This document shows positions 3,713-61,783 of a stretch of 64,000 nucleotides of DNA, in pieces (the stretch's first letter is position 1; the number at the start of each line of letters is the position of its first letter). The notes under the pieces are model-generated. The model was not told the DNA's origin, searched no databases, and worked only from the letters and a program-made list of their open reading frames with translations. The position numbers and the translations under genes were made by a program. Source of the stretch: Brachycybe producta (Eukaryota > Arthropoda > Diplopoda > Playtdesmida > Andrognathidae); assembly GCA_036925085.1 (NCBI GenBank), contig JAUPFP010000013.1, positions 4,270,655 through 4,334,654 on the forward strand, read 5' to 3'.

Positions 3713-4228
3713 ATGACAATGTATTTTAATTTAAATGTATCTTATTATAATAAAAAAATTCAGTTTACAAACTTTTTGTGATTTTCTGGTTAGCTTGGTT
3801 AACAAAAAAATGATCAATCACTATTTTTAGTAGTTTATTCAGTTCCCATTTAACAAAATATTCACCCCAAATCTGCTGTACTAGCTACAGTTGCTGTGAA
3901 AAGTAATGGGGACACATACTTTGGTAGATTATTTGTACTGATGTTCAGCAATAAAAAGAATTTAGAAACAAATAAACTTAGTATGTTTAAGTAGCAGCAG
4001 TAGTAACAAATAACAAGATTTTAAATTATAGTAACTAGCTAGAGTAATATGTAGTTATCATAAACTATAAGTTACAAGGCAGTAATATATAAAAAAAATG
4101 TTTATTAGATAGTTATAAATTGTTACAATTGGATATTAGTGTAATTGCATGCTTGTGATTTTTATAATTAATATTAGTCAATAACGACACAGTTAATATA
4201 TACTACAAAACCATTTTATTATAAAATG
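3713..4228. other. Non-coding spacer between convergent central genes
   Basis: AT-rich sequence with AATAAA-like words in both directions (for example 3759-3766) and no open frame of interest. It is consistent with 3' untranslated sequence of the two convergent central genes. Confidence 0.55.
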
Positions 4229-5611
4229 TTATTCACTTTTAATAAACCATGGATTTTCAGGATAAGTACAGCAAACAGGACAATACAGTAGACCCTCTTG
4301 ATTTTCATGAAAATAGGAACAATAATCAAAAGTATTTTTATGTATGAGTGGTATCAGCTCCTCAGTCCAAGTTGGTTGTAAAACACATGATCTTAGTAAG
4401 ATCATTATTTTCATTTTCAGATATTTCTTTAAACAATTCATCAATCACATCCAATGATGATGATTTAGATTTGTTTCTGGCTGCTACTTTATCTGACCAG
4501 TAGATGTTTGGATTGTTGGTAATAATTGTCCTTTGCCATAAACATCTTTAAATTCTTGCCAGTTTACAAGGTTATCACTTAAGAATTAGTTTACGGAATC
4601 CTGCCTGAATTTTTTTGCAACTGTTGAGTAAATGTTTATCATTATGATTATTAATATAATGCAAGGCTATTTTTCTAGATGTATGTATGATGTATGTATT
4701 TGTATGTTGCTAAGATAATCTCATGCCTTGCACCGACTATGATATAATCTATTGAAGTTTTCAAATTGTTTACATGCAGGCAATTTTCAAAAATTATTTC
4801 AGAAAGTTCTATTATTGTTAGTTCTTGAATATTGTTTGTATTTTTAATGTCTGCTGCAACATTTGAATGACCATCATTGTTCAAAAAGCCATACTCTTTT
4901 ATATATGTGATACATATGATGCACAACTCTGATGAGTTTTTGCAAATTTTATGTGCCCTTATGCACAACTCATACACTTTTTTGTGAATTAAATACATGA
5001 GTTCTTCCATCCACTGTGAAAATAGAATACATACAAGTTTGTGGAGTACTTGGTTTTCACCTGCTGAAATGCTTTTAAATAGAAAATAAGTCACATTTGT
5101 TGATTCTTCACAGTGTCCTTTTCCATATACCTCTTTATAATTGTCCCAGGTAGTTTGTGAGTCATGTTTTCAACAGTCTATGAAATTCTTGAATTTCTTT
5201 GTAGCTGTGATATTTTTGAATGTCACAAAATTCATGAAAATATCTTGAAACACAACATGCAAGCCAGTCCTTGTAGCTTGCAAAAATAAACTGTTGACGG
5301 GTACCTTTTAAGATATATTCCATAGCAAGGGTGCAACTTGTTACATGACCACAAGATTTGGCTAATTTTTCAGAAAAGTTCTGAATTGTTGTTTTTGATA
5401 AGTAGGTTGGTGTTTTTTTCTGCAAATGTTGTACTGTGTTTTTCAAAACAGTGTCGTTTAGCAGGTACAGCTGGCATGTCTTTGTCTTCCAATGCTTTGT
5501 ATTCTTCACAGTAATGTCTTTTTCCATAGTTGGCATAACCAGTGGCATAGTGGCATAACCATTCCAAGGTTCACATGGCCCACACCAATGGCTTTCTATC
5601 AAACTGCTCAT
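4229..5611 (-). pseudogene. Central minus-strand gene with repeated domain, broken into frames
   Basis: Three open stretches on the minus strand (5611-5162, about 5161-4675 and about 4570-4229) are in different frames but share sequence. The block Y-I-x-x-G-x-R-x-x-x-I-x-A-x-Y-K occurs at the end of the first and of the second. The block W-x-E-E-L-x-x-L-I-H-K occurs in the second and third. Each is preceded by a Y-K-E-V-Y-G-K-G or F-K-D-V-Y-G-K-G motif. This looks like a protein with two or three tandem copies of a Cys/His-containing domain, now interrupted by stops and shifts. The only convincing ATG is at 5611; the apparent starts of the other pieces are not ATG. The inward TATA box at 5743-5754 is well placed for it. 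I do not recognise the family, and multiple small introns are an alternative to decay. Confidence 0.5.
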
Positions 5612-5742
5612 TGTAATGAAATATTTCGACAATAAAATTCACTAGATTTGAAGACTGAAACTCACTGCCAACATGTGTTAATATTGGAACCAACTTAACA
5701 GAGCTGCAAAACTGATTTGATCCAAGTTTACACAAAAAATAA

Positions 5743-5754
5743 CTATTTATATGG
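5743..5754 (-). promoter_or_regulatory. Inward-facing TATA box in the right arm
   Basis: Mirror copy of 2682-2693 (minus strand CCATATAAATAG). It is about 130 bases upstream of the ATG at 5611 of the central minus-strand gene. Confidence 0.5.
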
Positions 5755-6028
5755 TTTTTTTATGAAGAGTTACCTGTGGTGCCACCTTAAAATATTATAA
5801 TCAAGATACAGGTCCTTCATGGCTTAAGCATAAACTGATACTCTAGAAATTAGAAATAAATGCCCTATCAACAAGCATTGAGTTGTTAGCATTTGAATAA
5901 GTACGTGTTACAACATGATCATGAGATTCATGACGTAGGACCTACATTCCATACCCTACTATACAAAACATTCTGTAATTCTAGATGTCGCTACAGTATT
6001 TCCTTAAAATTCTCTCATTTAAAAGCTA

Positions 6029-6038
6029 CTATAAATAC
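6029..6038 (+). promoter_or_regulatory. TATA box of the right PC4-like gene
   Basis: CTATAAATAC on the plus strand, about 78 bases before the ATG at 6116. It is the mirror of 2394-2403, with the same initiator-like TCAGTTTCACTC downstream. Confidence 0.65.
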
Positions 6039-6115
6039 AGCTGGTCAGCAGTTTCAGTTTCACTCACACATTACTAGCCAAAGAAGTACACTTTCAACCA
6101 TTATTTTAACTGAAA

Positions 6116-6886
6116 ATGCAACAAGCACAACAAGTCTACTTTGACAAGGAAGGTTCTTATGCTGCCTTAACAGGCTTCATGCAACCACCTGTCAAGAATC
6201 AGGACAATGATTCCGGCTATGGGACGGCATCTCTGGAAACATCAAATGTTGTTGACAGTGACTATAGGTATACTACTCCAGAATGTATAACAGCAAACTT
6301 TGATGATTCTCATAAAATAAATAATGAAGCGGTGTCACATATTAATGACTACCAAGAATGCACACAACCAATTGTTGATCAGGAAAGTGATTTAGGCTAT
6401 GGGATAGCACCACTGGAAACAGTAAATGATGTCTACATTGACTATAGGCATCCAACCCTGGAAGGTAAAAGCTCTGATCATGATATAAATAATATCACTC
6501 AAGCATATGCCTGTGAATACCAAGATTATGGCTACAAAGTATCTAACACAGGATCAACACCATGTGAGACCAACATTCAAAAAACCAATGCCTACAATGC
6601 TTCAAAAAATCAATATGATCTAAATAGTTCTTCAAAAGCAGTGGACAAAGATATGTTGTTTAAGATCAAAGATAATCGACATATTGGAGTTAGATTATAC
6701 AGAAACAAATTATATGTTAATATAAGAGATTATGTCATCAACAAAACTTCAAAAAAGATCACAGCCACTAGACGAGGAGTGAGCTTATCTGCTGAAGAGT
6801 GGGACATTATAAAGAAAACTATACCTTTTGTGGATGCTGCAATTGACTATTTTGAAATAATTTTACATTACTCCTTATCAAACTGA
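6116..6886 (+). CDS. Protein with PC4-like domain (right-arm copy, altered C-terminus)
   Basis: A copy of the protein at 1570-2316 with only three substitutions visible (K29Q, S93L, N171S), then a 2-base deletion just after the A-A-I-D of the last helix. This replaces the last four residues with a 12-residue tail (256 residues in all). The PC4-like core at about 181-244 is unchanged, so the product may still fold. AATAAA is at 6928-6933. Near identity of the two arms implies recent origin or ongoing homogenisation. If the protein works in replication or transcription of the element, two dosage copies in the arms may matter; that is inference. Confidence 0.78.
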   Translation: MQQAQQVYFDKEGSYAALTGFMQPPVKNQDNDSGYGTASLETSNVVDSDYRYTTPECITANFDDSHKINNEAVSHINDYQECTQPIVDQESDLGYGIAPLETVNDVYIDYRHPTLEGKSSDHDINNITQAYACEYQDYGYKVSNTGSTPCETNIQKTNAYNASKNQYDLNSSSKAVDKDMLFKIKDNRHIGVRLYRNKLYVNIRDYVINKTSKKITATRRGVSLSAEEWDIIKKTIPFVDAAIDYFEIILHYSLSN

Positions 6887-6959
6887 TATTGTTTATTTTT
6901 AGCTATTACTATTATGACATTATGCTGAATAAATGTTGTCATGCAAGATGTGATCAAAC

Positions 6960-8000
6960 TTGATGGCTATTACTATTTTTAGCCAAAAGGCTACAATAAT
7001 AAATTTTTTAATTCTACTATTGTCTACATATTTTTCATTAGCATGTTTTGGAAGTACAGTCTTGTTCAATATATTCAAAGTCCTGTTTTTTCCAAATTTT
7101 TATTATATATTTTCAAAGTTTTTACTAATACCACCATTTTTTTATATATTTGCTACATTTAATCTATTAACTAGAAGGTAGGATTGGGATTAAGAACAAA
7201 TGTGCACAGGTGTTGGGGCAGGAAATTGAACTCACACATAGGGGTGAGAGCCAAGAACAAATATGTATGTTTGGACAGGAAATTGAATTAACACATGTAA
7301 GGGGTGAGTGGGATGGGGATTATGAACAAGTTTGGGCAGGTGCATCAAAGTAGTATGTGTTGGAAGTACAGTCTTGTTCAATATATTCTAAGTCCTGTTT
7401 TTTCCAAATTTTTATTATATATTTTTAAAGTTTTTACTAATACCATCATTTTTTATATATTTGCTACATTTAATCTATTAACTAGAAGGTAGGATTGGGA
7501 TTAAGAACAAATGTGCACAGGTGTTGGGGCAGGAAATTGAATTCACACATAGGGGTGAAGGGGTTAAAACATGTTTGAACAGTTGTGAACAGGAAATTTG
7601 ACACAGGCAGGGAGGGGGAGAGGGTTTGAATCAAAAACAAGTTTGAACAAGTTTGTGCTGATGGAAATTATTTTTAAATAACTGTAGGTCAAAAACAAGT
7701 TTGAACAAGTTTGTGCTGATGGAAATTATTTTTAAATAACTGTAGGTCATAAACAAGTTTGGGCAGGTGTGAGAGCCAAGAACAAATATGTATGTTTGGA
7801 CAGGAAATTGAATTAACACATGTAAGGGGTGAATGGGATGGGGATTATGAACAAGTTTGGGCAGGTGCATCAAAGTAGTATATTTTGGATGTACTGTCTT
7901 TTTCAATATATTCTAAGTCCTGTTTTTTTCATATTTTCTACAATTAATTTATACATGAAGTTAAATTTCTATGTTCTAAACCCAGTTTCTTAAGCTTAAT
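6960..8000. repeat. Right-arm non-coding half with an extra ~310-bp tandem duplication
   Basis: The segment from about 7053 to 7365 (from cagtcttgttcaatatattc to the gtgcatcaaagtagtatgtg region) is repeated from 7366 with small changes. The left arm has one copy only. At 7640-7745 two 53-bp copies with caaacaagtttgaacaagtttg repeat, mirroring 1000-1107. No credible gene is seen. Confidence 0.8.
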
Positions 8001-8669
8001 GTGGAGAATTCTTCTAAAGTTATCATTATTAAGTCCAAATTCTTAATATATTTTCTAAGTTTTATGGTTAATGTCTTAAGTTTTCTTTTAAGTTTTTTAA
8101 ATACTTTATATTTTCTAAGTTTTTTGTGATACTTTGTCTTAATCCTTAAATTTCCCAATCCCAGTTTCAAATACTTTCTTGAATTTGTACAAGTTCATGT
8201 TTTATATGTAAACATTTTAGTCAATTAAACAATAAATGAGCAACATTTACTATTTTTAGCCAAAAGGCTACAATAATAAAAATTTTAATTCTATTATTTT
8301 CTATGTTTTTTTCATTAGCATGTTTTGGAAGTAGTCTTAATTATTTCTAAGTTCTATGCTTGTAAATCTAAGTTCTAGTCTTCCACTATCACATTCACAA
8401 ATTTCAAGGTTTAATTTATTTTCTAAGTCCAGCTTCTATAATTAATGTCTTAAGTTTTGTTTTAAGTTTTTCAAATACGTTATATTTTCTAAGTTTTTTA
8501 CAATACTTTGTCTCAATTCTTAAATTTTCCATTCCCCATTTCAAATACTTTCTTGAATTTGTACAAGTTCATGTTTTATATGTAAACATTTAGACAATTA
8601 AACAATAAATGACTATTTTTAGCTAAAAGGCTACAATAATAATTATTTTTAATTCTACTATTTTCTATG

Positions 8670-11016: not shown

Positions 11017-11683
11017 CCAGTATTGGGATGTTTTCTTGCAAATTGTCAGTTTCATTATATTAACAACTGGCATTGTTAGGCTATGCTGTGTGATATAGCG
11101 TAGTCGCCATGTTGTTTGTACATTGTTAGGGAAAGCTTATGTAGTTCCCAGTTGTTAGATCAGTGCGCAGGTGCGATAAAATAGTGGAAAAGCAATTGTT
11201 ATGATTATGTATTATGCCTTTTTAGAAAAAAAAAATCGTTATGAATGCGATTGCATGGGTCCCCAAGAGTGAATGGCCCTTAGGCTTCAGCCTACTTAGC
11301 CTAATGGATAATATGGCCAATGGTTACACCTCAATTACAATGCTTGTACATTGTTTTGCAATTGTTAAGGAATTAGTTCTGAGTTAGATTAATATTAAAG
11401 TAATTAAAAAAAACTATTGATATTTAAAAGCAATTGGATTTTTTTTTATATAGAAAACTTAATTAACTGCTATTACAAATTCCAAGTTTAAAAGTAATGT
11501 GATGAATTACTAATTACCTTGAAAAAGTTATCTAATTACAGTAATTTTAGCAAATAGCTTTTCTAACAATGTTAAAAAATGTCACATTTTTATTGTAAAA
11601 TATTCGTTTATTTTCAATTAAATAGAATATTGTACACACAAAAAATAGTAATCAATTTGAATGTAAATCAATAACCAATAACT

Positions 11684-12068
11684 TTAATTTTGTTTGTTGC
11701 CATTTGCGTCATAGCAACTTGTCCTGTCGCACCATCCGCCATTGAAACAGTAATAGCCATACGTACCACTGCACCATAAAGAAGGGTTACACGATTTTTC
11801 ATGAAAAGGTGATACATGGCCAGAGCATTCTGTAATTGATTAAGTAACAGTGTGTAAGATTGATTGCAAATTACTTGGTTACGCAAGATGAGAAAAGGTA
11901 ATAAAATGTCGACTAAAAAGTTTTTTTTCGTCTCCAGAAATGTATTTTAAATAGTAGAGCATTTTAAAATTGTTTCTACTCACTTCCAATTGATGCATTA
12001 ATTGATGTTGCCAATGCCACGATAAGAACGGTAACGAAAATTAGCATCTTGATAATGGAACGACTCAT
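11684..12068 (-). CDS. Secreted six-cysteine peptide, gene 1 (segmental copy A)
   Basis: Exon 1 is 12068-11984 and exon 2 is 11829-11684, with a phase-1 intron of 154 bases (GTGAGT donor, TTACAG acceptor). The product is 76 residues. Residues 1-25 form a signal peptide (MSRSIIKM start, hydrophobic stretch at about 8-21, likely cleavage after S-I-N-A). The mature part has six cysteines spaced C-11-C-5-C-7-C-5-C-4-C, with Y-Y before the fourth and C-Y-D after the last. A TATTTAAA-type box is at about 12111-12121 and AATAAA at 11607-11612. Unlike its relatives it lacks the 5' UTR intron; a deletion joins the leader close to the ATG. The scaffold suits a defence peptide, toxin or signalling peptide; no known family is assigned and function is unknown. 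Confidence 0.85.
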
Positions 12069-12960
12069 CTTGAATAATTGTTCAGAATAAAAAAAATGTT
12101 GGCTATTGCTGGTTTAAATACCTTCGCTGTTTTGCATTGTTGAGTGATTACAATACCATTGTGTGTATAGTTAGTGACAGGTCCTAATGTTTGAATAAAT
12201 TATAAATTTTTAAGTTGTCACTAATTGCAAACAATTGTAATTGTATAAATTGGCAGCTGTACATGCAAACTTGTTAATTTAACTACAATGTTTTAACATC
12301 TGGTGTTGATAGGTACGCAGTAACCATTCCGTATATAAATATATGAGCTAGCACAGCACGTGTACCATTTTGATGTTAAGAGCAGATGCGCATCTCTATT
12401 TTTAATATTAGATTTTAGCTGTTTCTTCGAAAAAATAAAATAACTTAATAAGAGACTTTAAAAGCGCCATGGACGTCAATGAGGCGATATATAGGCGCTG
12501 TGAGGGCGATATAGAGGCGCTGACATCGTTAATACCATTATTGTTAGAGGAAAAACCGTTTTTTAAAAATATTTCTAATTTCTTAATTAAAATAGAAAAG
12601 GTGTGTCATGAATAAGAAAAATCGGCAATACAGTGTTACGGAACCGTTAATACAGGTAAATTTCGGTAATAAAGCTAAAAATTCAAAAAGTGCTGTAAAA
12701 AAAAACTCAAAAATTGCAAAAAAAAATTTTCCATGTTAAAAAAAATTAAAATAAATATAAATTCATAACTAATAATAAAAAATAATCATGTTAAATAAAA
12801 TAGGTGGGTTTTTATTTCATCTGGATGCAAATTCCAATTTTTTGTTTAGTTTTTTTTTGTTTCTTCTGAATATCACTTTTTTTTAATATTTTTATATATA
12901 ATTGTTTTATATATCACAAGCGTAACAAATGAAGATGTTGGGTTAATTTAGTACCTAAGT
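12069..12960. other. Upstream region of peptide gene 1
   Basis: Holds the TATTTAAA-type promoter (about 12111-12121, minus strand) and a conserved block at 12466-12560 with aagcgccatggacgtcaatgag and gatatagaggcgctgac. Related blocks recur upstream of other family members (18526-18620, 21100-21185 inverted, 26066-26140 diverged). The rest is A/T-rich with A-runs and no gene. Confidence 0.6.
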
Positions 12961-13185
12961 ATGTGTCACGTGACTGGCCCTCTTGCACCGCCCGGTTGGG
13001 GTGGAGCGGGCTGCAAATCAGCCACCGTTGTCGTCGATTTTACCGCTCGCAACATGTCTGCACTCTTACAGTCCTGTCGTGAGTGGGTTCATCCACTCTT
13101 TAAGTCCACAAAAAGACTTCTCTTATTCTCAGGAACCTTCGGTATAGGGTGTGACGACTCCGACAGCACTCTCACTGTGTTTTGA
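12961..13185 (+). other. GC-rich block with 74-codon open frame (copy A)
   Basis: A compact GC-rich stretch in AT-rich DNA. It is identical, as far as I can compare by eye, to 19019-19243. It has an ATG-to-TGA frame of 74 codons, but there is no recognisable domain, signal peptide or splice context. It could be part of another transposon or a promoter/CpG-like segment. I would not call it a gene without transcript evidence. Confidence 0.3.
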
Positions 13186-13481
13186 GCATGCGGAGTGTTA
13201 TATGTGATATTCAATAACATGTTTTAAATGTATTATAGTTTGATTTGTACTAAAACAGCCCCATAATAAAACAAAAAACAGATAGGCCTATTTCCTTAAA
13301 AATCAGGAAGTAGAAATGACTACCACCCCTCCCTCCAAAAACCTTTTAAGTGTCTTTAAGACCTCAGGGGTCTAAACCACTTACTAATGAAAAAGATAAT
13401 TCATCACACCTTCCTCTCATGAATCCTCCTCTTACCACCCATAATCCCCTCCCCTTTTCTTAACAAAAACACTAGTTAGGC

Positions 13482-13701
13482 TAGGAATTGCTCGAATGTC
13501 GGTCCCCTTCAAAGAAAGCCAATAATGGGGACGTACCAACCACTGGCATCACGCGGCTTCACGCTTCAGTTGTGATTCAGACGCCGATGTGATAGAGACA
13601 TGCCAACACAGATGTGGACGTTTTTACAACTACTGGCTTTGCCAATTTGGCTTTGCCAACTGGCAAACAGCGGCATAGTGGGGACACGTCTTTATACCTT
13701 G

Positions 13702-13765
<64 letters not shown>

Positions 13766-14830
13766 AAAAATTAACTGCAGTTACATAACCGAGGTTAATA
13801 GTTAACTGCAGATAACCTAGACGCGGTACACTTGTGTTTCCATTTTTAAAACACCTGTAGTTAAATGATTTTGTCACTTCAGTTCGGTTTCATTTCTTTT
13901 TTAAAACAGTTGTACATTTTGTTGACATTTTCATTCCTTACTATCCGACATGTTGTTTGTAGGCTAAATTTGTTTAAACACAGAAAGTAATGTTATTTAA
14001 CCATTCAATAATGTGGTTTTAACTACATTGTGTCAATGCAGTTGAGTTAACTTCATTGTTCAGAAATTTAAATGTGGTTAACTTTTTAACTGTAGTTAAT
14101 TTTTTGTAATTTAAATGAGGTATTAGTGTTGGACACTTTGGCAGTATTTAAAAATCTCAGTTTAATGTTTCAATTTAATATTTTTATTTTCACTTCAAAA
14201 ATGGAATGTTCGATTGGCAAAAAAAAAAAGTTCCCACCAATGTGGAAAACAGACTAATCGTAGGTGACTAGGTGACCTACACTTTAAAACTGTAGGTCAC
14301 TCAATGACCTACTCTTTCAAACTTTTTTTTATCTAGGTGATTAGGTGGAGTTATCTTAAACTAAGCTTGTTGCAGAGGGGATACATTAATAACTAAGTTA
14401 TATATAAAAAGGAATTAATTATAAATGTTGATTTTTCTCTTAAGTACAGTATTTTAATTAATTTTTAATTAAAAAAAATCAGATGGAAGATACAAAAAAA
14501 AGTTTCTATTATATCCAATGCAAAAACCTTGATAGAACTTAGTTGTAGTAAATTGTTTTAGTGGTAAATATATAAGTAATTTAAAAAAATAATAAAAATC
14601 TACTTGTAATTTAAATTGGATTTTGTTTATGAAAAAGTTAATTAATTACAAGTATGAATTACACACGTTTAAAAAGTTACGTAGTGAATTACTAATTATC
14701 TTGATAAAAAGTATTTAATTACTGTAATTTTAGCAAAAATGGCTTAAAAAATGCAAAAATGATTCAATTTCATTGCGAAGTAATTATTTATTTCCAATTA
14801 AAATACAAGAAGAATGCCTTAATTATTGGA
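13482..14830. other. AT-rich spacer with (TC)n tract and half a MITE
   Basis: A (TC)n microsatellite lies at about 13709-13761. At 14249-14384 there is half of the MITE seen complete at 44786-45040, recognisable by cagactaatcgtaggtgac and paired gtaggtcac/gtgacctac words. The remainder is the 3' flank of peptide gene 2. Short open frames across the TC tract are artefacts. Confidence 0.6.
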
Positions 14831-15164
14831 TTATGGTTTTTGATTGCCATTTTGGTCGTAGCATTGAGTGTAGCAAGTAGAGTCTCGTCCATGTAATAGA
14901 TACACGCAATATAGTGGATAATCACCACTGCACATAGTTTGTCCACAGTTTCCTTTTCTGTAATCGTATAAATCGCCTTTGCATTCTGTAATTGATTAAG
15001 TAACAGTGTGTAAGATTGTTTGCAAATTAGATGATTAGGCAAAATGACAAATGATAATAAATGATAATTTTTTTTTACTCACGTCCAATTGCATTAATTG
15101 ATGTTGCCAATGTCACGATAAGAACGGTAACGAGAATTATCATCTTGATAATGGAACGACTCAT
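14831..15164 (-). CDS. Secreted six-cysteine peptide, gene 2
   Basis: Exon 1 is 15164-15083 and exon 2 is 14985-14831, giving 78 residues. A 5' UTR exon ends at 15309 (GTAAGT donor) and its intron ends at 15186 (CAG acceptor), so the gene has three exons. A TATTTAAA-type box is at about 15371-15379. The signal peptide is nearly that of gene 1. The mature peptide is strongly diverged, with cysteines spaced C-11-C-4-C-7-C-10-C-3-C. The first and third spacings and the C-Y-D after the last cysteine are kept. All splice sites and the frame are intact, so it looks functional. Its role is unknown; it is a paralogue that has moved far from genes 1, 4 and 5. Confidence 0.82.
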
Positions 15165-15309
15165 CTTAAAATAATATCTTCTTGTCTGCTTTACAAACTT
15201 AATTTTTTTTACTTATAATAAGGTATCATGTAATAGTAATATCTAATGCATATAATTTCATTGTATTAAATATTAAAATTAGTTCGTTTTCATTTGCTTT
15301 TAACTTACC

Positions 15310-16150
15310 AAATTGTATAAGAAGAGGTAGGAGAAATTGTTCAGAATAAAAAAAATGATGGATATTGCTGATTTAAATAGGTTTCTGTTTGGCATTGTTT
15401 AGTCATTAGAATATAGCATTGCGTGTATAGTATATATTGGCAGGTTCTATATGTTTGAAGGGAATATAATAAATCTTAAGTTCTTGCTAATTTGCAAACA
15501 ATTGTAATTGTATAAATTGGCAGCTGTACATGCAAACATGTTTCTCGGAACTACAATGTATTAACAACTGGTATTGACAGGTATACCGTGACGCAATAGC
15601 CATAAATGTACATGTATGTCTACACCAGTCGACATAAGAGGCGGTCTGGACTGCCGTCCTTTTTCACCTAAATTGTGCAGCATTTTTTTATGGCTAAAAT
15701 ACTTACTAAAACGATCACTTCGGTTACACTGGAGTGATATAATTTTATCATAGTTAACGCACCCGTTTACTTACTGTAACTGGTATTTGGATGTTTTCTT
15801 GCAAAATTGAATCAAGTTTTTAGCGATCCACTTTTGTTCCCATAGCCTTGTAACAAGGATTTAAGCAAGGCATTGATTCGAACTGTTTTGCAGAGCCCCC
15901 TAAGTGCTTTGCTTTTCTGCTTCGTTTCTGATTTTATGTAATTTTAATTTCAAATTTGCAACTTTTAGCAGTAACTTTTACAATAATTTGTAAATTCTAA
16001 AATGTTAAAATAATTATATAATTGTTTATTATAGTTTTTTTTATTGTATTATTATTGTATGGTTGTTATTTTGGGCCCTCTTGAAGAAAAAGGTACTGGT
16101 TTAGAGGATTAGTGAAGCCCACTGTGGGACCTGTTTGTATAGCCCTGCTT
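15310..16150. other. Upstream flank of peptide gene 2
   Basis: Shares sequence with 16640-17095 upstream of the next family member (for example the aagaggcggtctgga and aaacgatcact words), showing tandem duplication of whole gene units. 15820-16150 shows no recognised feature. Confidence 0.5.
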
Positions 16151-16472
16151 GTTCCTCTATGGAGGGCTATTTTCAGAACCATCGCACACGATATTGTTAC
16201 AGGTTATTTCCTGGTTACTGTATACTTTGCCTTTGCAATCTATAATTGAATAAGTAACATTGAGTGTGTTAGATTGATTACATATTATTTGCTTAAGCAA
16301 GATGAAAAGGTAATAAAAAAATGTACCATTTAAAACTTTGTTTTAAATGTGTTTTTTTTAATGGTAAAGTATTCTTATTGTTTTTAGCTCACCTGATGCA
16401 TTAATTGATGTTGTCAATGTTGCGATTAGAACGGTAACGAAAATGATCAACTTGATAATGGAACGACTCATC
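16151..16472 (-). pseudogene. Secreted cysteine-rich peptide, gene 3, truncated
   Basis: Exon 1 (ATG at 16472) codes an intact family signal peptide and ends in a GTGAGC donor. Exon 2, after a TTATAG acceptor near 16236, keeps only the first three cysteines (C-11-C-4-C). It then enters unrelated sequence and reaches a stop at about 16160. The 3' half of the exon is missing, so this is a pseudogene or a drastically shortened variant. The 5' UTR exon donor (near 16590) is preserved. Confidence 0.72.
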
Positions 16473-17745
16473 TTAAAATAATATCTTCTTGTCTGTTTTA
16501 CAAATTTAAAATGTTTCACTTGTAAGGTCTGATGTAATAGTAATATCTAATACATTTAATATCAATTAAAATTAGTTTGTTTAGTTCGATTTAACTTACT
16601 AAATTGTATAAGACGAGTGAGGAGAGTAATTAGAGTTTAAAAAAATTCAGAAAAAAAAATATTTGATGTTGCTGATTTAAATTAAATGCCTTCTGTTTAG
16701 CATTGTTGAGTCATTGGAATAGAATTGCGTGTATGGTATAGTGGCAGGTCCTATATATTTGAAGGAAATATAATAAATCTTAAAATCTTGCTGATTGCAA
16801 ACATAATTGTATAATTGTATAAATTGGCAGCTGTACATGCAAACATGTTTCTCGGAACTACAATTTATTAACAACTGGTATTGACAGGTAGACTGTGACG
16901 TAATAACCATACATGTACATGTATGTGTACACAAGTAGACGTAAGAGGCGGTCTGGATTGCCGTCTTTTTCACCTCAATTGTGGCCAAAAAAGTTATTAA
17001 AACGATCACTTTGGTTACAACGGATTGATATAATTTTATTAGTGGATGTCAAACATAGTTAATGCACCCGTTTAGTGTAACCAGTATTGGGATGTTTTCT
17101 TGCAAATTGTCAGTTTCATTATATTAACAACTGGCATTGTTAGGCTATGCTGTGTGATATAGCGTAGTCGCCATGTTGTCTGTACATTGTTAGGGAAAGT
17201 TTATGTAGTTCCCAGTTGTTAGATCAGTGCGCAGGTGCGATAAAATAGTGGAAAAGCAATTGTTATGATTATGTATTATGCCTTTTTAGAAAAAAAAATC
17301 GTTATGAATGCGATTGCATGGGTCCCCAAGAGTGAATGGCCCTTAGGCTTCAGCCTACTTAGCCTAATGGATAATATGGCCAATGGTTACACCTCAATTA
17401 CAATGCTTGTACATTGTTTTGCAATTGTTAAGGAATTAGTTCTGAGTTAGATTAATATTAAAGTAATTAAAAAAAACTATTGATATTTAAAAGCAATTGG
17501 ATTTTTTTTATATAGAAAACTTAATTAACTGCTATTACAAATTCCAAGTTTAAAAGTAATGTGATGAATTACTAATTACCTTGAAAAAGTTATCTAATTA
17601 CAGTAATTTTAGCAAATAGCTTTTCTAACAATGTTAAAAAATGTCACATTTTTATTGTAAAATATTCGTTTATTTTCAATTAAATAGAATATTGTACACA
17701 CAAAAAATAGTAATCAATTTGAATGTAAATCAATAACCAATAACT

Positions 17746-18130
17746 TTAATTTTGTTTGTTGCCATTTACGTCATAGCAACTTGTCTTGTCGCACCATCCG
17801 CCATTGTAACAGTAATAGCCATACGTACCACTGCACCCTGAAAAAGGGATACACGTTTTTTCATGAACAGGTGATACATGGCCAGGGCATTCTGTAATTG
17901 ATTAAGTAACAGTGTGTAAGATTGATTGCAAATTACTTGGTTACGCAAGATGAGAAAAGGTAATAAAATGTCGACTAAAAAGTTTTTTTTCGTCTCCAGA
18001 AATGTATTTTAAATAGTAGAGCATTTTAAAATTGTTTCTACTCACGTCCATCTGATGCATTAATTGATGTTGCCAATGCCACGATAAGAACGGTAACGAA
18101 AATTAGCATCTTGATAATGGAACGACTCAT
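17746..18130 (-). CDS. Secreted six-cysteine peptide, gene 4 (segmental copy B)
   Basis: Exon 1 is 18130-18046 and exon 2 is 17891-17746, giving 76 residues with the same layout as gene 1: signal peptide, then C-11-C-5-C-7-C-5-C-4-C. Against gene 1 the signal-peptide codons are unchanged and the 154-base intron is identical. Thirteen bases differ at the end of exon 1 and in exon 2, and each changes an amino acid (for example S to P, F to V, N to I, W to G). All cysteines are kept. The TATTTAAA-type box is at about 18172-18182. Like gene 1 it lacks the 5' UTR intron. Function unknown. Confidence 0.85.
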
Positions 18131-19018
18131 CTTGAATAATTGTTCAGAATAAAAAAAATGTTGGCTATTGCTGGTTTAAATACCTTTGCTGTTTTGCATT
18201 GTTGAGTGATTACAATACCATTGCGTGTATAGTTAGTGACAGGTCCTAATGTTTGAATAAATTATAAATTTTGAAGTTGTCACTAATTGCAAACAATTGT
18301 AATTGTATAAATTGGCAGCTGTACATGCAAACTTGTTAATTTAACTACAATGTTTTAACATCTGGTGTATATAGGTACGCAGTAACCATTCCGTATATAA
18401 ATATATGAGCTAGCACGTGTACCGTTTTGATTGTAAGAACAGATGCGCATCTCTATTTTTAATATTAGATTTTAGCTGTTTCTTCGAAAAAATAAAATAA
18501 CTTAATAAGAGACTTTAAAAGCGCCATGGACGTCAATGAGGCGATATATAGGCGCTGTGAGGGCGATATAGAGGCGCTGACATCGTTAATACCATTATTG
18601 TTAGAGGAAAAACCGTTTTTTAAAAATATTTCTAATTTCTTAATTAAAATAGAAAAGGTATGTCATGAATAAGAAAAATCGGCAATACAGTGTTACCGAA
18701 CCGTTAATACAGGTAAATTTCGGTAATAAAGCTAAAAATTCAAAAAGTGCTGTAAAAAAAAACTCAAAAATTGCAAAAAAAAATTTTCCATGTTAAAAAA
18801 AATTAAAACAAATATAAATTCATAACTAATAATAAAAAATAATCATGTTAAATAAAATAGGTGGGTTTTTATTTCATCTGGATGCAAATTCCAATTTTTT
18901 GTTTAGTTTTTTTTTTGTTTCTTCTGAATATCACTTTTTTTTAATATTTTTATATATAATTGTTTTATATATCACAAGCGTAACAAATGAAGATGTTGGG
19001 TTAATTTAGTACCTAAGT
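18131..19018. other. Upstream region of peptide gene 4
   Basis: Near-copy of 12069-12960: promoter, the conserved aagcgccatggacgtcaatgag block at 18526-18620, then A/T-rich sequence. No gene. Confidence 0.6.
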
Positions 19019-19243
19019 ATGTGTCACGTGACTGGCCCTCTTGCACCGCCCGGTTGGGGTGGAGCGGGCTGCAAATCAGCCACCGTTGTCGTCGATTTTA
19101 CCGCTCGCAACATGTCTGCACTCTTACAGTCCTGTCGTGAGTGGGTTCATCCACTCTTTAAGTCCACAAAAAGACTTCTCTTATTCTCAGGAACCTTCGG
19201 TATAGGGTGTGACGACTCCGACAGCACTCTCACTGTGTTTTGA
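19019..19243 (+). other. GC-rich block with 74-codon open frame (copy B)
   Basis: Identical to 12961-13185 by eye. No recognisable domain; probably not a gene. Confidence 0.3.
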
Positions 19244-19506
19244 GCATGCGGAGTGTTATATGTGATATTCAATAACATGTTTTAAATGTATTATAGTTTG
19301 ATTTGTACTAAAACAGCCCCATAATAAAACAAAAAAACAGATAGGCCTATTTCCTTAAAAATCAGGAAGTAGAAATGACTACCACCCCTCCCTCCAAAAA
19401 CCTTTTAAGTGTCTTTAAGACCTCAGGGGTCTAAACCACTTACTAATGAAAAAGATAATTCATCACACCTTCCTCTCATGAATCCTCCTCTTACCACCCA
19501 TAATCC

Positions 19507-19774
19507 TTTATGTTGTAGGGCTGGAGTTACTGTTAAAGTTAGTGCTATTCCTGAGAGGTGGGATAGGGGTGATATAGTTACTCGTAAGGCACGTTATGTA
19601 AATGATGGATTAATTGAAGCATGTAGTAAGGTGGGGGCCCAGGTAATAGACTGGAGGGCAACTATGCTCAATTTTGGGGGTTCCTGGAGTAGGGATGGGG
19701 TTCATTTTAATTACAGGGCTGGTAGGATTGTGGGTAAAAAGATAGGTGATTTTGTTAAGCATTTTTTAGGGTAA
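19507..19774 (+). pseudogene. LINE ORF1 3' part, SGNH-hydrolase-like
   Basis: Starts inside the domain at the insertion boundary and ends at a TAA at 19772-19774. It shows W-D-R-G-D, G-A-Q-V-I-D-W-R and the D-G-V-H-F-N motif near the end, which contains the catalytic Asp-His pair of SGNH/GDSL esterases. Such a domain is known from ORF1 proteins of CR1-clade elements. The N-terminal part is missing through 5' truncation, so it cannot be translated from its own start. Confidence 0.78.
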
Positions 19775-19820
19775 GGTTTTGGGGTTTAGGTGCAAATGCT
19801 TTAGGGGGGTTGATACTAAT

Positions 19821-21011
19821 ATGAATGCTCCACAGCTTGTTGCTGAGAGCAATAGTTCCTTTGTTTCAGGTATTATTTCTTCAAACACTGTCCAGGAAGG
19901 AAATCATTTAGGAAAACACACTTCAGCTATACCTTCACATGTAAAGGTTATGGTAGTTAACTGTAGGAGTCTACGAAACAAAGTTCCTGAGTTCATTGCG
20001 GCAGTTGAGGAGACTGGTTGCAATATAATTCTTGGTACAGAGTCATGGCTTGATGATACTGTTAATAATGGCGAAATATTTCCAGATGGTTTCACAGTGT
20101 ACCGTAGAGACAGGGTTGGTTGTTCTGGAGGTGGGGTTTTCATAGCTATTTCACAAATATTTCATAGTTGCAGGGAAACAAGTTTTGAAACAGACTGTGA
20201 AATAGTATGTTGTAGTTTAAGGCTAAAGAATGGTAAAAAGGTGTTTTTATATTCTTTCTATCGGCCACCGGGATCCTCCATAGCAGATGTCACTAGTGTA
20301 AGAACTTCTTTGGACACTCTTCATCGTAAATACCATAGCCCAATCATTATTTTAGGAGGTGATGTAAATTTTCCAAACATCAACTGGGAAATGCATACGG
20401 TGATCAGTGGCAGTGACAAGCCATTAGCAGTTTCATTTTTAGATAGTATGAATACTTATTCTATGGAACAGGTTGTAACTAAACCAACCAGAAATGACAA
20501 AATTCTTGATGTAGTACTGACTAATAGTCCGGAGTTATTATCCAATGTTAGGGTATCAGGGGGAATTAGTGATCATCAGATTGTCTTATGTGATGTTAAT
20601 GCATGTGTGGAAAAAATTTCTAAGGTTAAAAGAGTAGTGTTTCTTTTTAACAAATGTAATTGGGATGGTTTTAAGTCACATTTGATAGATAATTTTCATA
20701 AATTTAAAGAATGTTTTCATCCTCAAAATGTGCATTTGAATTGGTCACGATTTCATAGTTTAATTTTAAATGGGTCTTCCTCCTTTATTCCAACCAAGGT
20801 AGTTAGAGACTGTGCCACACCAGAATGGTACACTAGCAAAGTTAAAAGGGCTCTTCGTAAGCAACGCTTATGGAGGAATAGGGCTAGAAATCACCCAAAA
20901 TTAGTGAATTGCAATGAATTCCGTATTGCACGCACAGCAGCGAAACGGGAGATCTTGTTAGCTCACGATAATTTTAAAACAGAAACGCTTGGAGAATGGT
21001 TAAAAACGGAC
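19821..21011 (+). pseudogene. LINE ORF2, apurinic-type endonuclease part
   Basis: An open frame from an ATG at 19821 (47 bases after the end of ORF1). It contains the endonuclease/exonuclease/phosphatase signature: N-C-R-S-L-R-N-K at the start, G-T-E-S-W-L with the catalytic Glu, Y-R-P-P-G, G-D-V-N-F-P-N-I-N-W, and S-D-H-Q near the end. A linker of about 110 residues follows. The LINE reading ends at 21011, where a foreign segment begins; the frame continues into it by chance to 21056. Confidence 0.85.
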
Positions 21012-21521
21012 TTAGACAGAATTTTTCTTATTCATGACATACCTTTTCTATTTTAATTAAGAAATTAGAAATATTTTTAAAAAATGGTTTTTCCTCTAAC
21101 AATAATGGTATTAACGATGTCAGCGCCTCTATATCGCCCTCACAGCGCCTATATATCGCCTCATTGACGTCCATGGCGCTTTTAAAGTCTCTTATTAAGT
21201 TATTTTATTTTTTCGAAGAAACAGCTAAAATCTAATATTAAAGACAGGGATGCGCATCTGCTCTTAACATCAAAATGGTACACGTGCTGTGCTAGCTCAT
21301 ATATTTATATACGGAATGGTTACTGCGTACCTATATACACCAGATGTTAAAACATTGTAGTTAAATTAACAAGTTTGCATGTACAGCTGCCAATTTATAC
21401 AATTACAATTGTTTGCAATTAGTGACAACTTCAAAATTTATAATTTATTCAAACATTAGGACCTGTCACTAACTATACACGCAATGGTATTGTAATCACT
21501 CAACAATGCAAAACAGCGAAG

Positions 21522-21614
21522 GTATTTAAACCAGCAATAGCCAACATTTTTTTTATTCTGAACAATTTTGTTAAATTGTAATTACATCACTCCTACCTCT
21601 TCTTATACAATTTG
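21522..21614 (+). promoter_or_regulatory. Promoter and 5' UTR exon of peptide gene 5
   Basis: GGTATTTAAACC (TATA-like) is at about 21522-21533, followed by a leader that ends at 21614 with a GTAAGT donor. The matching acceptor is at 21704-21705 (AACAG), 20 bases before the ATG. The TTTAAA box and the splice sites are conserved at genes 2, 7 and 9. Confidence 0.6.
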
Positions 21615-21725
21615 GTAAGTTAAATCAAACCAAACGAATTAATTCTAATTAACAATGAAATTCTATTAGATATTACAAGTGAAAATTTTTAAATTTGTAA
21701 AACAGACAAGACGATATTATTCAAG

Positions 21726-22106
21726 ATGAGTCGTTCCTTTATCAAGATGCTAATTTTCGTTACCGTTCTTATCGTGACATTGGCAACATCCATTAATGCA
21801 ATTGGACGTGAGTAAAAACAATTTTAAAATGCTCTACTATTTAAAATACATTTCTGGAGACGAAAAAAACTTTTTAGTCGACATTTTATTACCTTTTCTC
21901 ATCTTGCGTAACCAAGTAATTTGCAATCAATCTTACACACTGTTACTTAATCAATTACAGAATGCAGCGGCATTTTAGATCCTTTTCCAGAAAAAACGTG
22001 TTTCCCTTTTGAACAGTGCCATGGTACGTATAAGTATTACTGTTACCATGGCGCACGGTGCGACAAGACAAGTTGCTATGACGTAAATGGCAACAAACAA
22101 AATTAA
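21726..22106 (+). CDS. Secreted six-cysteine peptide, gene 5 (inside the LINE)
   Basis: Exon 1 is 21726-21807 and exon 2 is 21961-22106, giving 75 residues. The signal peptide matches the family (MSRSFIKM start; cleavage probably after S-I-N-A). The mature region keeps the C-11-C-5-C-7-C-5-C-4-C spacing of genes 1 and 4 with many residue changes between cysteines. The intron is almost identical to theirs (about one substitution and one indel in 153 bases). The frame, splice sites, promoter, 5' UTR intron and 3' AATAAA are intact although the gene sits in a dead LINE, so it may be expressed. Function unknown. Confidence 0.83.
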
Positions 22107-22483
22107 AGTTATTGGTTATTGATTTACATTCAAATTGATTACTATTTTTTGTGTGTACAATATTCTATTTAATTGAAAATAAACGAATATTTTACAATAA
22201 AAATGTGACATTTTTTAACATTGTTAGAAAAGCTATTTGCTAAAATTACTGTAATTAGATAACTTTTTCAAGGTAATTAGTAATTCACCACATTACTTTT
22301 AAACTTGGAATTTGTAATAGCAGTTAATTAAGTTTTCTATATAAAAAAAATCCAATTGCTTTTAAATATCAATAGTTTTTTTTAATTACTTTAATATTAA
22401 TCTAACTCAGAACTAATTCCTTAACAATTGCAAAACAATGTACAAGCATTGTAATTGAGGTGTAACCATTGGCCATATTGGAC

Positions 22484-23499
22484 CCAAAATTATTTTGGCG
22501 TTACATCAAGAACTCTAGGCGAAGTAGAGAATCTATTCCTTCTCTGGTTGACACAAATGGGAAGCTTGTTTCAGATCCAGTAGGGAAAGCTACCTTATTA
22601 AATGAACAATACAAGAAGGTCTTCACAATTGATGATGGCATACCACATGAGGGTTTTCCTTCAACATCTCTTTTTATGGATCAAATTGTAATAACTGCAG
22701 ATGGGATAGTCAAGCAACTTCTAAAATTAGACTCAAATAAAACCTGTGGTCCAGATGGGATGTATGCTATCATTTTAAAAAATCTTGCACAAGAGTTGGG
22801 TCCATACCTTCAGTTAATTTTTCAACAGAGTTTAGATGTAGGTATTGTACCAGATATGTGGAAATTAGCTAATGTTAGTCCAATTTTTAAATCAGGAGAC
22901 AAGTCTCAGGTAACTAATTACAGACCCGTGTCTTTAACCTCGATAGTTTGCAAGGTCCTTGAACATATTATATATTCCTCCTCAATGAATTTTCTTATGG
23001 AAAACAATCTTTTGTGTGATAACCAGCATGGGTTTCTTAGGGGGCGTTCATGTGAAACCCAGCTTATTCTTTTAGTTGATGACCTTCAGAAAATTTTAGA
23101 CAAAGGCAGTCAGATAGATTTGGTTTTTCTTGATCTCTGCAAGGCATTTGACATAGTTTCTCACTCAAAACTAATGACAAAAATTAGTGGGTATGGATTG
23201 GGTGAACAGGTGTATAAATGGGTGCATTCTTTTTTGAGTGATAGGAAACAAAGGGTTGTTGCAGGTGGGTCTGAATCTGACTGGATAGGGGTTACATCAG
23301 GGGTTCCTCAGGGTAGTGTGTTGGGTCCACTTCTGTTTCTTTTGTATATCAATGACCTCAGCAGTCAAGTTAGCAGCAATTGCCGGCTATTTGCAGATGA
23401 TACAATAATTTATCGTGAGGTTACCTCTGACAATGATTGCAATATTATTGATAGTGACTTGAAAGCAATAGAGGCATGGTGTTCTTCAACTTCAACTTA
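22484..23499 (+). pseudogene. LINE ORF2, reverse transcriptase core
   Basis: Resumes right after the nested insertion. It shows the order expected of a non-LTR reverse transcriptase: S-N-K-T-C-G-P-D-G, N-Y-R-P-V-S-L-T-S, Q-H-G-F-L-R-G-R-S, F-L-D-L-C-K-A-F-D (catalytic Asp), G-V-P-Q-G-S-V-L-G-P-L-L-F, and the catalytic F-A-D-D-T. It ends at an in-frame stop caused by a shift near 23490. Normally this would be continuous with the upstream endonuclease and the downstream thumb region. Confidence 0.9.
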
Positions 23500-24167
23500 A
23501 TAAGGAAAAATGTTGTGTAATGAGGGTAGCTAGGGGAAAGAATCCAATAATATTTCCATATAGAATAGGGGCCATTCCACTTAATAACATAAATTCTTAT
23601 AAATATTTGGGGGTAACGATTACAGCTAAATTTTCTTGGAAGCTGCATGTCGAACAGATTATTTCCAAGTCTATGCAGATGCTTAGGTTTAGTCAACGCG
23701 TTCTAAGAAGGTGTCCCAGGGAGGTAAAATGTATAGCATATCAATCATTAGTACGTCCCCATCTAGAATACTGCAGCTCCGTGTGGAATCCCCACACTGA
23801 GGACTTAGCTCACTCTATAGAAATGATCCAACGCAGGGCTGCTAGGTTTGTTTGTGGTAAATATGGATATGCCGACAGTGTAACTAAAATGCTTTCAGAG
23901 CTTGGTTGGGATAGTTTACTTGCAAGACGTTCAGATTTTAATCTTAATATCTTTAATCGAATGCTAGAAGGCTCTTGCCCTAAACCTACTTCAAGTAAAC
24001 TTTGCAGGGCATTATATTTGGGTAGGGGTGACCACTCTAACAAAGTTGGAGAGATTTTTGCACGAACAGATTTTTATTACTGGTCATTTGTCCCGAGGGC
24101 GATTCGACAATGGAACTCGCTTGCTGGGGATTTTGTGCAGGAAAAACGTATTTTATGGGAGTCATAA
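23490..24167 (+). pseudogene. LINE ORF2, C-terminal part in a shifted frame
   Basis: Continues the protein in another frame from the Q-L-N-K-E-K-C-C words at about 23490. It contains Y-K-Y-L-G-V-T, the R-P-H-L-E-Y-C-S-S-V-W-N-P block and R-A-I-R-Q-W-N-S-L at the end, all typical of the CR1 ORF2 tail. Related, more decayed sequence is present on the minus strand at 57918-58255. Confidence 0.85.
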
Positions 24168-28667: not shown

Positions 28668-29053
28668 TTAACCACCAATAACTTGAATTTTGTTGCCACT
28701 TTCGTTGTAGCAAACATCGTCGCAAAATCCATCATCATCGACACAGTAATATTTAAACAGACCATCGCACACAAGAGGGTAACAGTCTCCTTGGTAGTCA
28801 CTGAATAAATTAGTGTCGCAATCTATAATTAAGTAACAATGAGTGTGTTAGATTGATTGCACATTATTTGCTGAAGAAAGATGAAAATCGAATAAAACTG
28901 TACCATTTAAAACTTTGTTTTAAATGTATTTTAAATAGTAAAATGTATTTTAAATTGTTTTTACTCACGATCATTAGCTGCATTAATTGATGATGCCAAT
29001 GTCACAATAAGAACGGTAACGAAAATTATCATCTTGATAATGAAACGACTCAT
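28668..29053 (-). CDS. Secreted six-cysteine peptide, gene 7
   Basis: Exon 1 is 29053-28969 and exon 2 is 28822-28668, giving 79 residues. The 5' UTR exon ends at 29167 with a GTAAGT donor, and its acceptor is at about 29074. A TTTAAA box is near 29241-29250. After the signal peptide (MSRFIIKM start) the six cysteines are spaced C-11-C-4-C-7-C-6-C-3-C. The mature part is unusually acidic (several D residues around the fourth and fifth cysteines), and the tail ends in a K-I-Q-V-I-G-G stretch. It is intact and closest to broken gene 6. Function unknown. Confidence 0.82.
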
Positions 29054-60397: not shown

Positions 60398-61783
60398 TTA
60401 ATTTTGTCTGTTGCCATTTACGTCATAGCAAGCATTCCAGTCGCAATCTCCGTCAAAGTCGTAACAGTAATATTTATACCTATCACTGCACGTTAAAGGG
60501 AAACACCCTCTTTGATTGTCATCATTGCACATTAAAGATTCACACCCTCTTCTATAAACAGTATCAACATGGCCAGAGCATTCTGTAATTGATTAAGAAA
60601 CAGTGTGTAAGATTGATTGCAAAACATTTTGTTAAGCAAGATGAGAAAAGGTAATAAAATGTCGACTAAAAAGTTTTTTTTCGTCTCCAGAAATGTATTT
60701 TAAATAGTTGAGTATTTTTAAAATAGTTGGGTAACCCGTCATAAATGACGGGAGCCAAATTCACAGGTAATTGTGCCCAGCATTAGAATTTCTTTTCCTC
60801 CGCCCGTTTATGACGTCAGACCAAGTAACAATTGATGACGATCATAAAAGGGCGGAGCAAAAGAAATTCTAATGCTGGGCACAATTGCCTGTGATAAATT
60901 CTAGTTTAATCTTGCTACTATTATCCCCGCCCCTTTTTATATTTGAAAGAGAAAATAAGCTTTTCATTTTCTCTGGTGTGCGCATGCGCGTTGTTTGTTC
61001 CTTTTTTTACTCCTTTCATTTCAATTTCAGTTTTCCCCTCCCCCTTCCCCTCTCTCCCTACCCTTTCCAACCTTCCCCCCCCCCCGCTCCAATTTAATAG
61101 CATGGGGTTCTTGGATGGGGAGAGTGCAACGTAATCTTGACCTTGAGAAAAAAAAGCGGTTCATTTATTCATTTAAATTTATATAAATTCCGACGTGCTT
61201 CAAGGTTTTTGTCCTTAATTGTTTGTACAGCGTTACTCAGAGAAAGAGAGAAAGAAGGAAACACCGATAGACGGGGCTTAATATATATATATACTAGTGG
61301 GGTAACCCGTCATAAATGACGGGAGCAAAATTAACAGGCAATTGTGCGCATGCGCGTCGTTTTTTCCTTTTTTTTACTCATATCATTTCAATTTTCGTCA
61401 CCCCCTCCCACTTTTCTCTCTCCCCCTCCCACTTTTCTCTCTCCCCTCTACACTTTTCAACCTTCCCCCCCCTCTCTCGAATTTAATATCATAGGGTTCT
61501 TGGATGGGAAGGGTGCAACATATAGTTGACCTTGAGAAAAAAAAACAGTTCATTTATTCAAATCTATATAAATTCTGATGTGCTTCAATGGTTGTACAGC
61601 GTTATCCCAGAAAGAGAGAAAGATATATACATGTAGAAAGACACACAGAGACACAGACCTGGCAAAATATATATATATATAATAATTGTTTTACTCACGT
61701 CCAATTGATGCATTAATTGATGTTGCCAATGTTACAATAAGAAAGGTAACGAAAATTAGCATCTTGATAACGGAACGACTCAT
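60398..61783 (-). CDS. Secreted eight-cysteine peptide, gene 9
   Basis: Exon 1 is 61783-61699 and exon 2 is 60582-60398, giving 89 residues. The phase-1 intron is 1116 bases because a MITE and two repeat units have entered it. The 5' UTR exon ends at 61895 (GTAAGT donor), and a TTTAAA box is near 61978-61987. The signal peptide is the family type. The mature part has eight cysteines spaced C-11-C-4-C-7-C-4-C-7-C-6-C-4-C. A G-C-x4-C module appears twice (separated by N-D-D-N-Q-R), so an extra cysteine pair was added by internal duplication. The tail (C-Y-D-V-N-G-N) is shared with genes 1, 4 and 5. Frame and splice sites are intact. Function unknown. Confidence 0.8.
60720..61685. repeat. Repeat insertions filling the intron of gene 9
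   Basis: Two related units start with gggtaacccgtcataaatgacggg (60729 and 61300). Each continues with a gcgcatgcgcg word, pyrimidine-rich sequence and a ttggatgggnagngtgcaac block (about 60975-61240 and 61342-61620), so one is a duplicate of the other. The same gacgggttacccc word occurs at 46650-46690. No coding content. Confidence 0.8.
60763..60892. mobile_element. Small fold-back MITE in the gene 9 intron
   Basis: Ends acaggtaattgtgcccagc and gctgggcacaattgcctgt with long inverted arms (attagaatttcttt). The flanks gccaaattc and gataaattc may be a 9-base duplication with two mismatches, like the F1 family. Confidence 0.83.

What the first reader, a model, noticed from the sequence alone, without database searches (positions are those of the whole stretch)
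11684..18130. Between two segmental duplicates only the mature peptide has changed: 13 of 13 base changes alter an amino acid
Genes 1 and 4 lie in the same 2.5-kb duplication. The 154-base coding intron is identical, the signal-peptide codons are unchanged and the flanks differ only here and there. Yet exon 2 has 10 base differences in 146 and the end of exon 1 has 3, and all 13 are non-synonymous. None hits a cysteine. Under neutral drift a good share should be synonymous and the intron should differ too. This is what diversifying selection looks like in defence or venom peptides. The alternative is exchange of exon 2 with another paralogue.
Basis: seen in the sequence. Interest (0 to 1): 0.9.

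Follow-up and report, generated by a model that had tools for sequence, protein, structure and literature searches.

The report
Peptide genes diverging under positive selection
A cluster of small secreted cysteine-rich peptide genes keeps its introns and flanks almost unchanged while the working part of the peptide changes very fast, as in venom and defence peptides; the pattern is strong, but its kind is known.

Summary
Genes 1 and 4 lie in a 2.43-kb duplication and differ at 13 of 156 mature-peptide bases, 0 of 75 signal bases, 0 of 154 intron bases and 14 of 2039 flank bases (P = 2.7e-9). All 13 are replacements (12 residues); no cysteine is hit. A third unit (21021-22479, inside a LINE) differs from gene 4 at 25 of 146 exon-2 bases and 11 of 1071 non-coding. 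A pair near C13:4.9 Mb has 10 replacements, 0 silent, intron 1 of 151. Site models on four sets of 7-12 copies put 37-51% of codons at omega 6-13; 0 of 40 neutral simulations reach the observed omega. A frameshifted copy has lower omega (0.59 against 2.45, P = 0.025). None of 11 other copies is a donor for the 13 sites; a small exchange in the third unit is not excluded. The six-cysteine peptide has no Pfam or solved-structure match. The organism was not identified. Unnamed family, known evolutionary mode.

The parts
11017..13447 (.). duplication unit A, carries gene 1
   Evidence: 98.5% identical to unit B
17081..19506 (.). duplication unit B, carries gene 4
11984..12068 (-). gene 1 exon 1 (signal peptide plus first 3 mature residues and 1 nt)
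   Evidence: signal cleavage read from the sequence, not predicted
11830..11983 (-). gene 1 intron, 154 nt, identical to that of gene 4
11684..11829 (-). gene 1 exon 2, six-cysteine mature peptide
   Evidence: 10 of 146 bases differ from gene 4
18046..18130 (-). gene 4 exon 1
17892..18045 (-). gene 4 intron
17746..17891 (-). gene 4 exon 2
21021..22479 (+). third, inverted unit (gene 5), lying between two parts of a LINE
   Evidence: endonuclease ORF 19770-21056 before it, reverse transcriptase ORF 22466-23500 after it
21726..21807 (+). gene 5 exon 1
21961..22106 (+). gene 5 exon 2: 25 of 146 bases differ from gene 4; intron 1/153, 3' flank 1/371
15083..15164 (-). gene 2 exon 1, more distant paralogue
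14831..14985 (-). gene 2 exon 2
16393..16471 (-). gene 3 exon 1; exon 2 downstream is cut short by a stop (defective copy)
28969..29053 (-). paralogue o4299 exon 1; its exon 2 is 28668-28822
60398..60582 (-). paralogue p4332 exon 2, eight cysteines; its exon 1 is 61699-61783

Best explanation
Genes 1 and 4 are recent duplicates in a birth-and-death cluster of small secreted six-cysteine peptide genes. After duplication, point-by-point positive (diversifying) selection fixed amino-acid changes in the mature peptide, above all between cysteines, while the cysteine scaffold and the CYDxNGN end stayed nearly fixed and the rest of the locus drifted slowly. Shown: the divergence pattern, the replacement excess, the absence of a donor among the copies compared and its repetition in other copies. 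Inferred: the loops are a binding surface whose target (microbe, prey, predator or partner molecule) keeps changing, so that new duplicates are favoured when their loops differ. The exact role, venom or immune effector or recognition peptide, is not determined.
For:: mature 13/156 against non-coding 14/2193 for genes 1-4 (P = 2.7e-9); gene 4-gene 5 exon 2 25/146 against non-coding 11/1071 (P = 2.7e-16)., exon 2: q4896-t4934 0 silent and 10 replacement with intron 1/151; f4263-g2 0 and 2; d4219-p4332 3.2 and 33.8; four sister pairs pooled 58.8:3.2 against a silent-site share of 0.226, P 1.5e-4 (at most 3 silent of 62) or 6.7e-4 (at most 4). M1a against M2a 2dlnL 56-74 in four taxon sets; M0 omega 1.9-3.4, above 1 with P 0.006 to 9e-5; on the 8-copy tree 5 silent changes against 122 base changes in replaced codons; on the gene 1 branch 10:0 in exon 2; the gene 1/4/5 clade has omega 6.5, against omega fixed at 1 P = 0.007; frameshifted e4237 has 0.59 against 2.45 elsewhere (P = 0.025); 0 of 40 neutral simulations (8 copies, one-ratio model) reach omega 3.44 (maximum 1.70), and the fit is the same on the exon-2 tree; none of 11 other copies carries the gene 1 or gene 4 states as a block.
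Against: Taken alone, 13:0 is borderline against the silent-site share (P about 0.05). In gene 4-gene 5 the Nei-Gojobori count gives 2.6 silent differences in 30.8 sites against 11/1071 non-coding; I did not test this excess, and 9 of 15 columns near the start of that exon differ, so a small segment exchange is possible in gene 5. The codon models are my own implementation, with site-model branch lengths scaled from M0; simulations calibrate only the one-ratio model; the tree has weak deep support (24-48%). That e4237's omega of 0.59 equals neutrality was not tested, only that it differs from the rest. Single genome: no polymorphism, no reads, no transcripts. The whole-genome DNA search scored 40 of 557 candidates; the protein search scored 33 of 33. 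A 5000-base run of N at C13:4203655-4208654 could hide a copy.
Confidence: 0.82

Rival explanations
1. Exon 2 of one copy was replaced by gene conversion or exon exchange with another paralogue.
For: Many similar copies lie on the same contig. In gene 5 exon 2 has dense differences and some silent ones, and 97 nt of its 5' leader are 100% identical to the copies near 4.9 Mb, so exchange may occur in the family.
Against: At the 13 sites the best of 11 other copies matches gene 4 at 8 and gene 1 at 6, scattered and not as a block. Six gene 1 residues in exon 2 occur in no other of the 13 copies aligned. The intron between the two changed stretches is identical. Silent sites did not come along (0 in exon 2).
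Confidence: 0.08
2. Genes 1 and 4 are old duplicates whose flanks and intron are kept alike by ongoing gene conversion while selection keeps exon 2 different (an island of old divergence).
For: Sharp edges of the divergent island in gene 4 against gene 5: windows in the intron and 3' flank are 99-100% identical, those in exon 2 81-87%; silent differences in gene 5.
Against: Silent sites of exon 2 should then be old too: 0 of 31 differ between genes 1 and 4, and 0 of 36.6 in the q-t pair. This still needs selection on exon 2, so it changes the history and not the cause.
Confidence: 0.12
3. Exon 2 mutates faster than the rest of the locus (targeted hypermutation).
For: The excess is confined to the mature codons.
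Against: Silent sites in exon 2 are not fast: 5 silent changes on the 8-copy tree, 0 in three sister pairs. The 13 changes are of mixed type (6 transitions, 7 transversions, counted from the list).
Confidence: 0.03
4. Assembly or base-calling artefact, or two haplotypes placed in tandem.
For: Some copies in the assembly look identical, and no reads could be checked.
Against: The two units have different sequence on both outer sides and are separated by about 3.6 kb with genes 2 and 3. Substitution errors would not be all replacements that spare every cysteine. The same pattern is found in other copies.
Confidence: 0.03

Closest known systems
Conotoxin gene superfamilies of cone snails (PMC3862624, passages read)
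   Same: Conserved signal exon, introns conserved within a superfamily (98-99% for two pairs within a species), variable mature exon; phase-1 first intron in most superfamilies, as far as the passage shown goes.
   Different: One intron and two exons here (as only in their A superfamily), no propeptide seen, another cysteine spacing (recalled). None of 4 peptides scanned reaches a Pfam cut-off. In five superfamilies of that paper both Dn and Ds rise towards the mature exon; here silent sites stay slow.
Snake venom toxin genes with accelerated or segment-switched exons (PMC2711939, PMC2474615, passages read)
   Same: Replacement divergence exceeds silent and intron divergence; cysteines kept; introns alike.
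   Different: Other proteins (no Pfam match here). Genes 1-4 show single spaced changes rather than switched segments; only gene 5 looks a little segment-like.
Mussel myticin-C (PMC3164099, passages read)
   Same: Cysteine-rich secreted peptide; positive selection in the mature part (M8-M8a), recombination invoked.
   Different: There the introns are highly variable, exon 2 close to them; myticin-C has a C-terminal region; no sequence relation was tested.
Six-cysteine defensins and EGF-like domains (features recalled)
   Same: Small secreted disulfide peptide.
   Different: Spacing in gene 1 is C-x11-C-x5-C-x7-C-x5-C-x4-C, without a CxC; no Pfam match.

Membership tests
Rapidly diversifying toxin/defence peptide genes (mode of evolution, not homology) | Replacement divergence above silent and non-coding divergence in the mature peptide | tested here: met
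Rapidly diversifying toxin/defence peptide genes (mode of evolution, not homology) | Cysteine scaffold conserved, loops variable | tested here: met
   8 copies, naive posteriors: 0.0 at the six cysteines; 0.9 or more at 21 of 33 codons between them (only 2 of 7 in the loop between the third and fourth)
Rapidly diversifying toxin/defence peptide genes (mode of evolution, not homology) | Multigene cluster with birth and death | tested here: met
   20 loci of the main family, all on contig C13; by my reading 13 of 20 with intact ORF, 7 defective
Venom or immune effector | Expression in venom gland, sting cell, haemocyte or epithelium; activity | not testable with these tools
   no transcripts, organism unidentified
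Classical cationic antimicrobial peptide | Net positive mature peptide | tested here: not met
   exon-2 net charge (K+R minus D+E) -8 to +3 in 13 copies, 11 of 13 at or below 0; whole mature gene 1 is +1, gene 4 -1
Conotoxins, three-finger toxins, defensins, EGF-like domains | Match to the family's Pfam profile | tested here: not met
   4 peptides against all of Pfam-A, none reached a curated cut-off; weak hits to COA2 and YxzE are below theirs; two of the four typed strings had slips
Known fold | Match to a solved structure | tested here: inconclusive
   no convincing hit, but the model (exon 2, 7 sequences) has mean pLDDT 76, pTM 0.56

The most novel reading that the evidence does not exclude
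An undescribed family of hypervariable six-cysteine secreted peptides, with no known domain, whose mature codons diverge about 13 to 17 times faster per base than their own flanks. New copies spread along one chromosome (one into a LINE), cysteines are added by internal repetition, and a frameshifted copy falls back to a lower omega, so selection on each new copy can be measured against its own flanks. It may be an arms-race peptide, or a recognition ligand rather than an antimicrobial.
Probability: 0.45. Interest if true: 0.6.

Novelty: new member of a known kind. Interest (0 to 1): 0.5.

Why it matters
The cluster gives a clean within-genome measure of positive selection: near-identical duplicated flanks set the neutral clock, and several independent copies and a frameshifted copy serve as replicates and control. 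It adds a peptide family without a known domain to the gene families where replacement change outruns neutral change, and points to loops worth testing for function.

Tried and rejected
Tried without result: Pfam scan of four peptides, sequence search of solved structures with gene 1, AlphaFold2 model and fold search. Identification of the organism through SSU rRNA or COX1 was not possible because the genome search machine did not answer. Rfam scan of the window: 0 matches. Four paper searches were by words only; of their listings four papers were read in passages, none whole.

Considered and rejected: single-tract conversion from a held paralogue; hypermutation of exon 2 (few silent changes); haplotype artefact (outer flanks differ). 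Gene 5's lack of codon 26 and its extra 5' leader first looked like conversion of exon 1. One search shows that this leader is also found at 8 or more other loci (top-five lists only) and that genes 1 and 5 differ there by about 150 bases, so a shared deletion in genes 1 and 4 is enough; this was not tested further.

Dropped before counts: c4199 (no exon 1 start, frameshift in exon 2), g4265, h4267, g3 and n4298 (defective) were left out of the codon analyses; r4900 and s4907 (like q4896) and b3554 (exons like a2546) were represented by one copy; v4256 was in pairwise tables and but not in the codon models; u4252 and w4311 were not analysed in codons (w4311 is in the protein alignment).
Full report
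What is there. On the minus strand of the window lie two-exon genes for a 76-residue secreted peptide. Gene 1 has exon 1 at 12068-11984, a 154-base GT-AG phase-1 intron and exon 2 at 11829-11684; gene 4 has the same layout at 18130-17746. Codons 1-25 look like a signal peptide (read from the sequence, not predicted by a tool). The mature peptide of 51 residues has six cysteines, spaced in gene 1 C-x11-C-x5-C-x7-C-x5-C-x4-C. A TATTTAA box lies 52 bases before the start codon, and AATAAA signals 71 and 89 bases after the stop, in both genes.

The pair. The two genes sit in a 2.43-kb duplication (11017-13447 and 17081-19506). One search gives the substitutions: 5' flank 12/1374, signal codons 0/75, last 10 bases of exon 1 3/10, intron 0/154, exon 2 10/146, 3' flank 2/665. 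Mature codons against non-coding: 13/156 and 14/2193, P = 2.7e-9. All 13 are replacements. They alter 12 residues, none a cysteine, because two fall in one codon. On silent sites alone the pair is borderline, P about 0.05.

The family. A whole-genome search with the gene 1 protein gave 33 exon matches, all on the same contig C13. From these and the fetched stretches I read 20 loci of the main family and 3 distant ones. By my reading 13 of the 20 have intact frames and 7 are defective. Two copies (d4219, p4332) have eight cysteines in exon 2, seemingly by internal repetition.

Replication. An independent pair near C13:4.9 Mb (q4896, t4934) has 10 replacement and 0 silent differences in exon 2 and 1/151 in the intron; f4263-g2 has 2 and 0; d4219-p4332 has 33.8 and 3.2. 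Pooled with genes 1-4 over these four sister pairs the ratio is 58.8:3.2 where silent sites are 22.6% of all. In the q-t pair 8 of 10 changes are placed on the branch to q, a copy with an intact frame, and 2 on t, whose exon 1 is frameshifted.

Third unit. An inverted copy (gene 5, 21021-22479) lies between the two parts of a LINE. Against gene 4 its exon 2 has 25/146 differences while intron, 3' and 5' flanks together have 11/1071 (P = 2.7e-16). In sliding windows against gene 4, intron and 3' flank are 99-100% identical, windows in exon 2 81-87%, and the 5' flank 99-100% except two windows of 90-93%. This copy shows some silent differences (2.6 in 30.8 by Nei-Gojobori) and a dense run of changes near the start of exon 2, so a small exchange in addition to point selection is possible there.

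Models. With my own codon-model code, M0 omega for exon 2 is 1.92 with 12 copies, 2.25 with the 10 intact ones and 3.2-3.4 with 7-8 close copies, each above 1 (P 0.006 to 9e-5). M1a against M2a gives 2dlnL 56-74 in four taxon sets, with 37-51% of codons at omega 6-13. The six cysteines have posterior 0.0 for selection; 21 of the 33 codons between them have 0.9 or more. The result is the same on the exon-2 tree, and 0 of 40 neutral simulations reached the observed one-ratio omega. Exon 1 gives omega 0.69, not different from 1 (10 copies). A copy with a frameshifted exon 1 (e4237) has its own omega of 0.59 against 2.45 elsewhere (P = 0.025), in the direction expected once selection is lifted. 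Deep nodes of the non-coding tree are weak (24-48%).

Exchange. At the 13 sites, the 11 other copies match gene 1 at 3-6 and gene 4 at 2-8, scattered; six gene 1 residues in exon 2 occur in no other of the copies aligned. A donor in the 5000-base N run at C13:4203655-4208654, or lost from the genome, cannot be excluded.

What it is. None of 4 peptides scanned reaches a Pfam cut-off. Gene 1 has no convincing match among solved structures, and a modest model of exon 2 (pLDDT 76) has no fold match. Exon-2 net charge is -8 to +3 over 13 copies, zero or below in 11, which does not fit a classical cationic antimicrobial. The best reading is a disulfide-braced ligand with variable loops under an arms race. 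Whether venom, defence or recognition is open.

Known background. Conserved introns with a variable mature exon are described for conotoxins (PMC3862624, passages) and accelerated exons with conserved introns for snake venom genes (PMC2711939, PMC2474615, passages); positive selection in the mature part of a mussel peptide is described in PMC3164099 (passages). So the mode is known. The family has no name in the libraries searched here (Pfam and PDB only).

Noticed in passing
21021-22479 inside 19770-24167: A peptide-gene unit lies between the endonuclease part and the reverse transcriptase part of a LINE. The edges were read, but no intact LINE copy was compared, so the empty site and any target duplication or microhomology are unknown.
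   Followed up: partly
1-8591: Large inverted repeat, arms of 1.1 kb, 1.1 kb and 0.4 kb at 99% around 2664-5768; matching ORFs on both sides, a PC4 domain found in the one scanned. Mobile or virus-like element, only described.
   Followed up: no
C13:4219924 (L011/L012) and 60398-61783: Two paralogues carry eight cysteines in exon 2, seemingly by repetition of a loop, and have introns of about 0.7 and 1.1 kb.
   Followed up: partly
21568-21715 against genes 1 and 4: About 150 bases of 5' leader present in gene 5 and at least 8 other loci are missing from genes 1 and 4; in gene 5, 97 bases there are 100% identical to the copies near C13:4.9 Mb.
   Followed up: partly
34075-35949: Long transposase ORF (Pfam DDE_Tnp_1_7, E = 2e-73; piggyBac type, recalled).
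   Followed up: no
12449-12620: A roughly 170-base repeat in the 5' flank of genes 1, 4 and 5 matches on a dozen other contigs.
   Followed up: no
C13:4896406, 4900092, 4907502: Three copies that look identical, by eye, over the stretch printed; recent duplication or assembly artefact.
   Followed up: no
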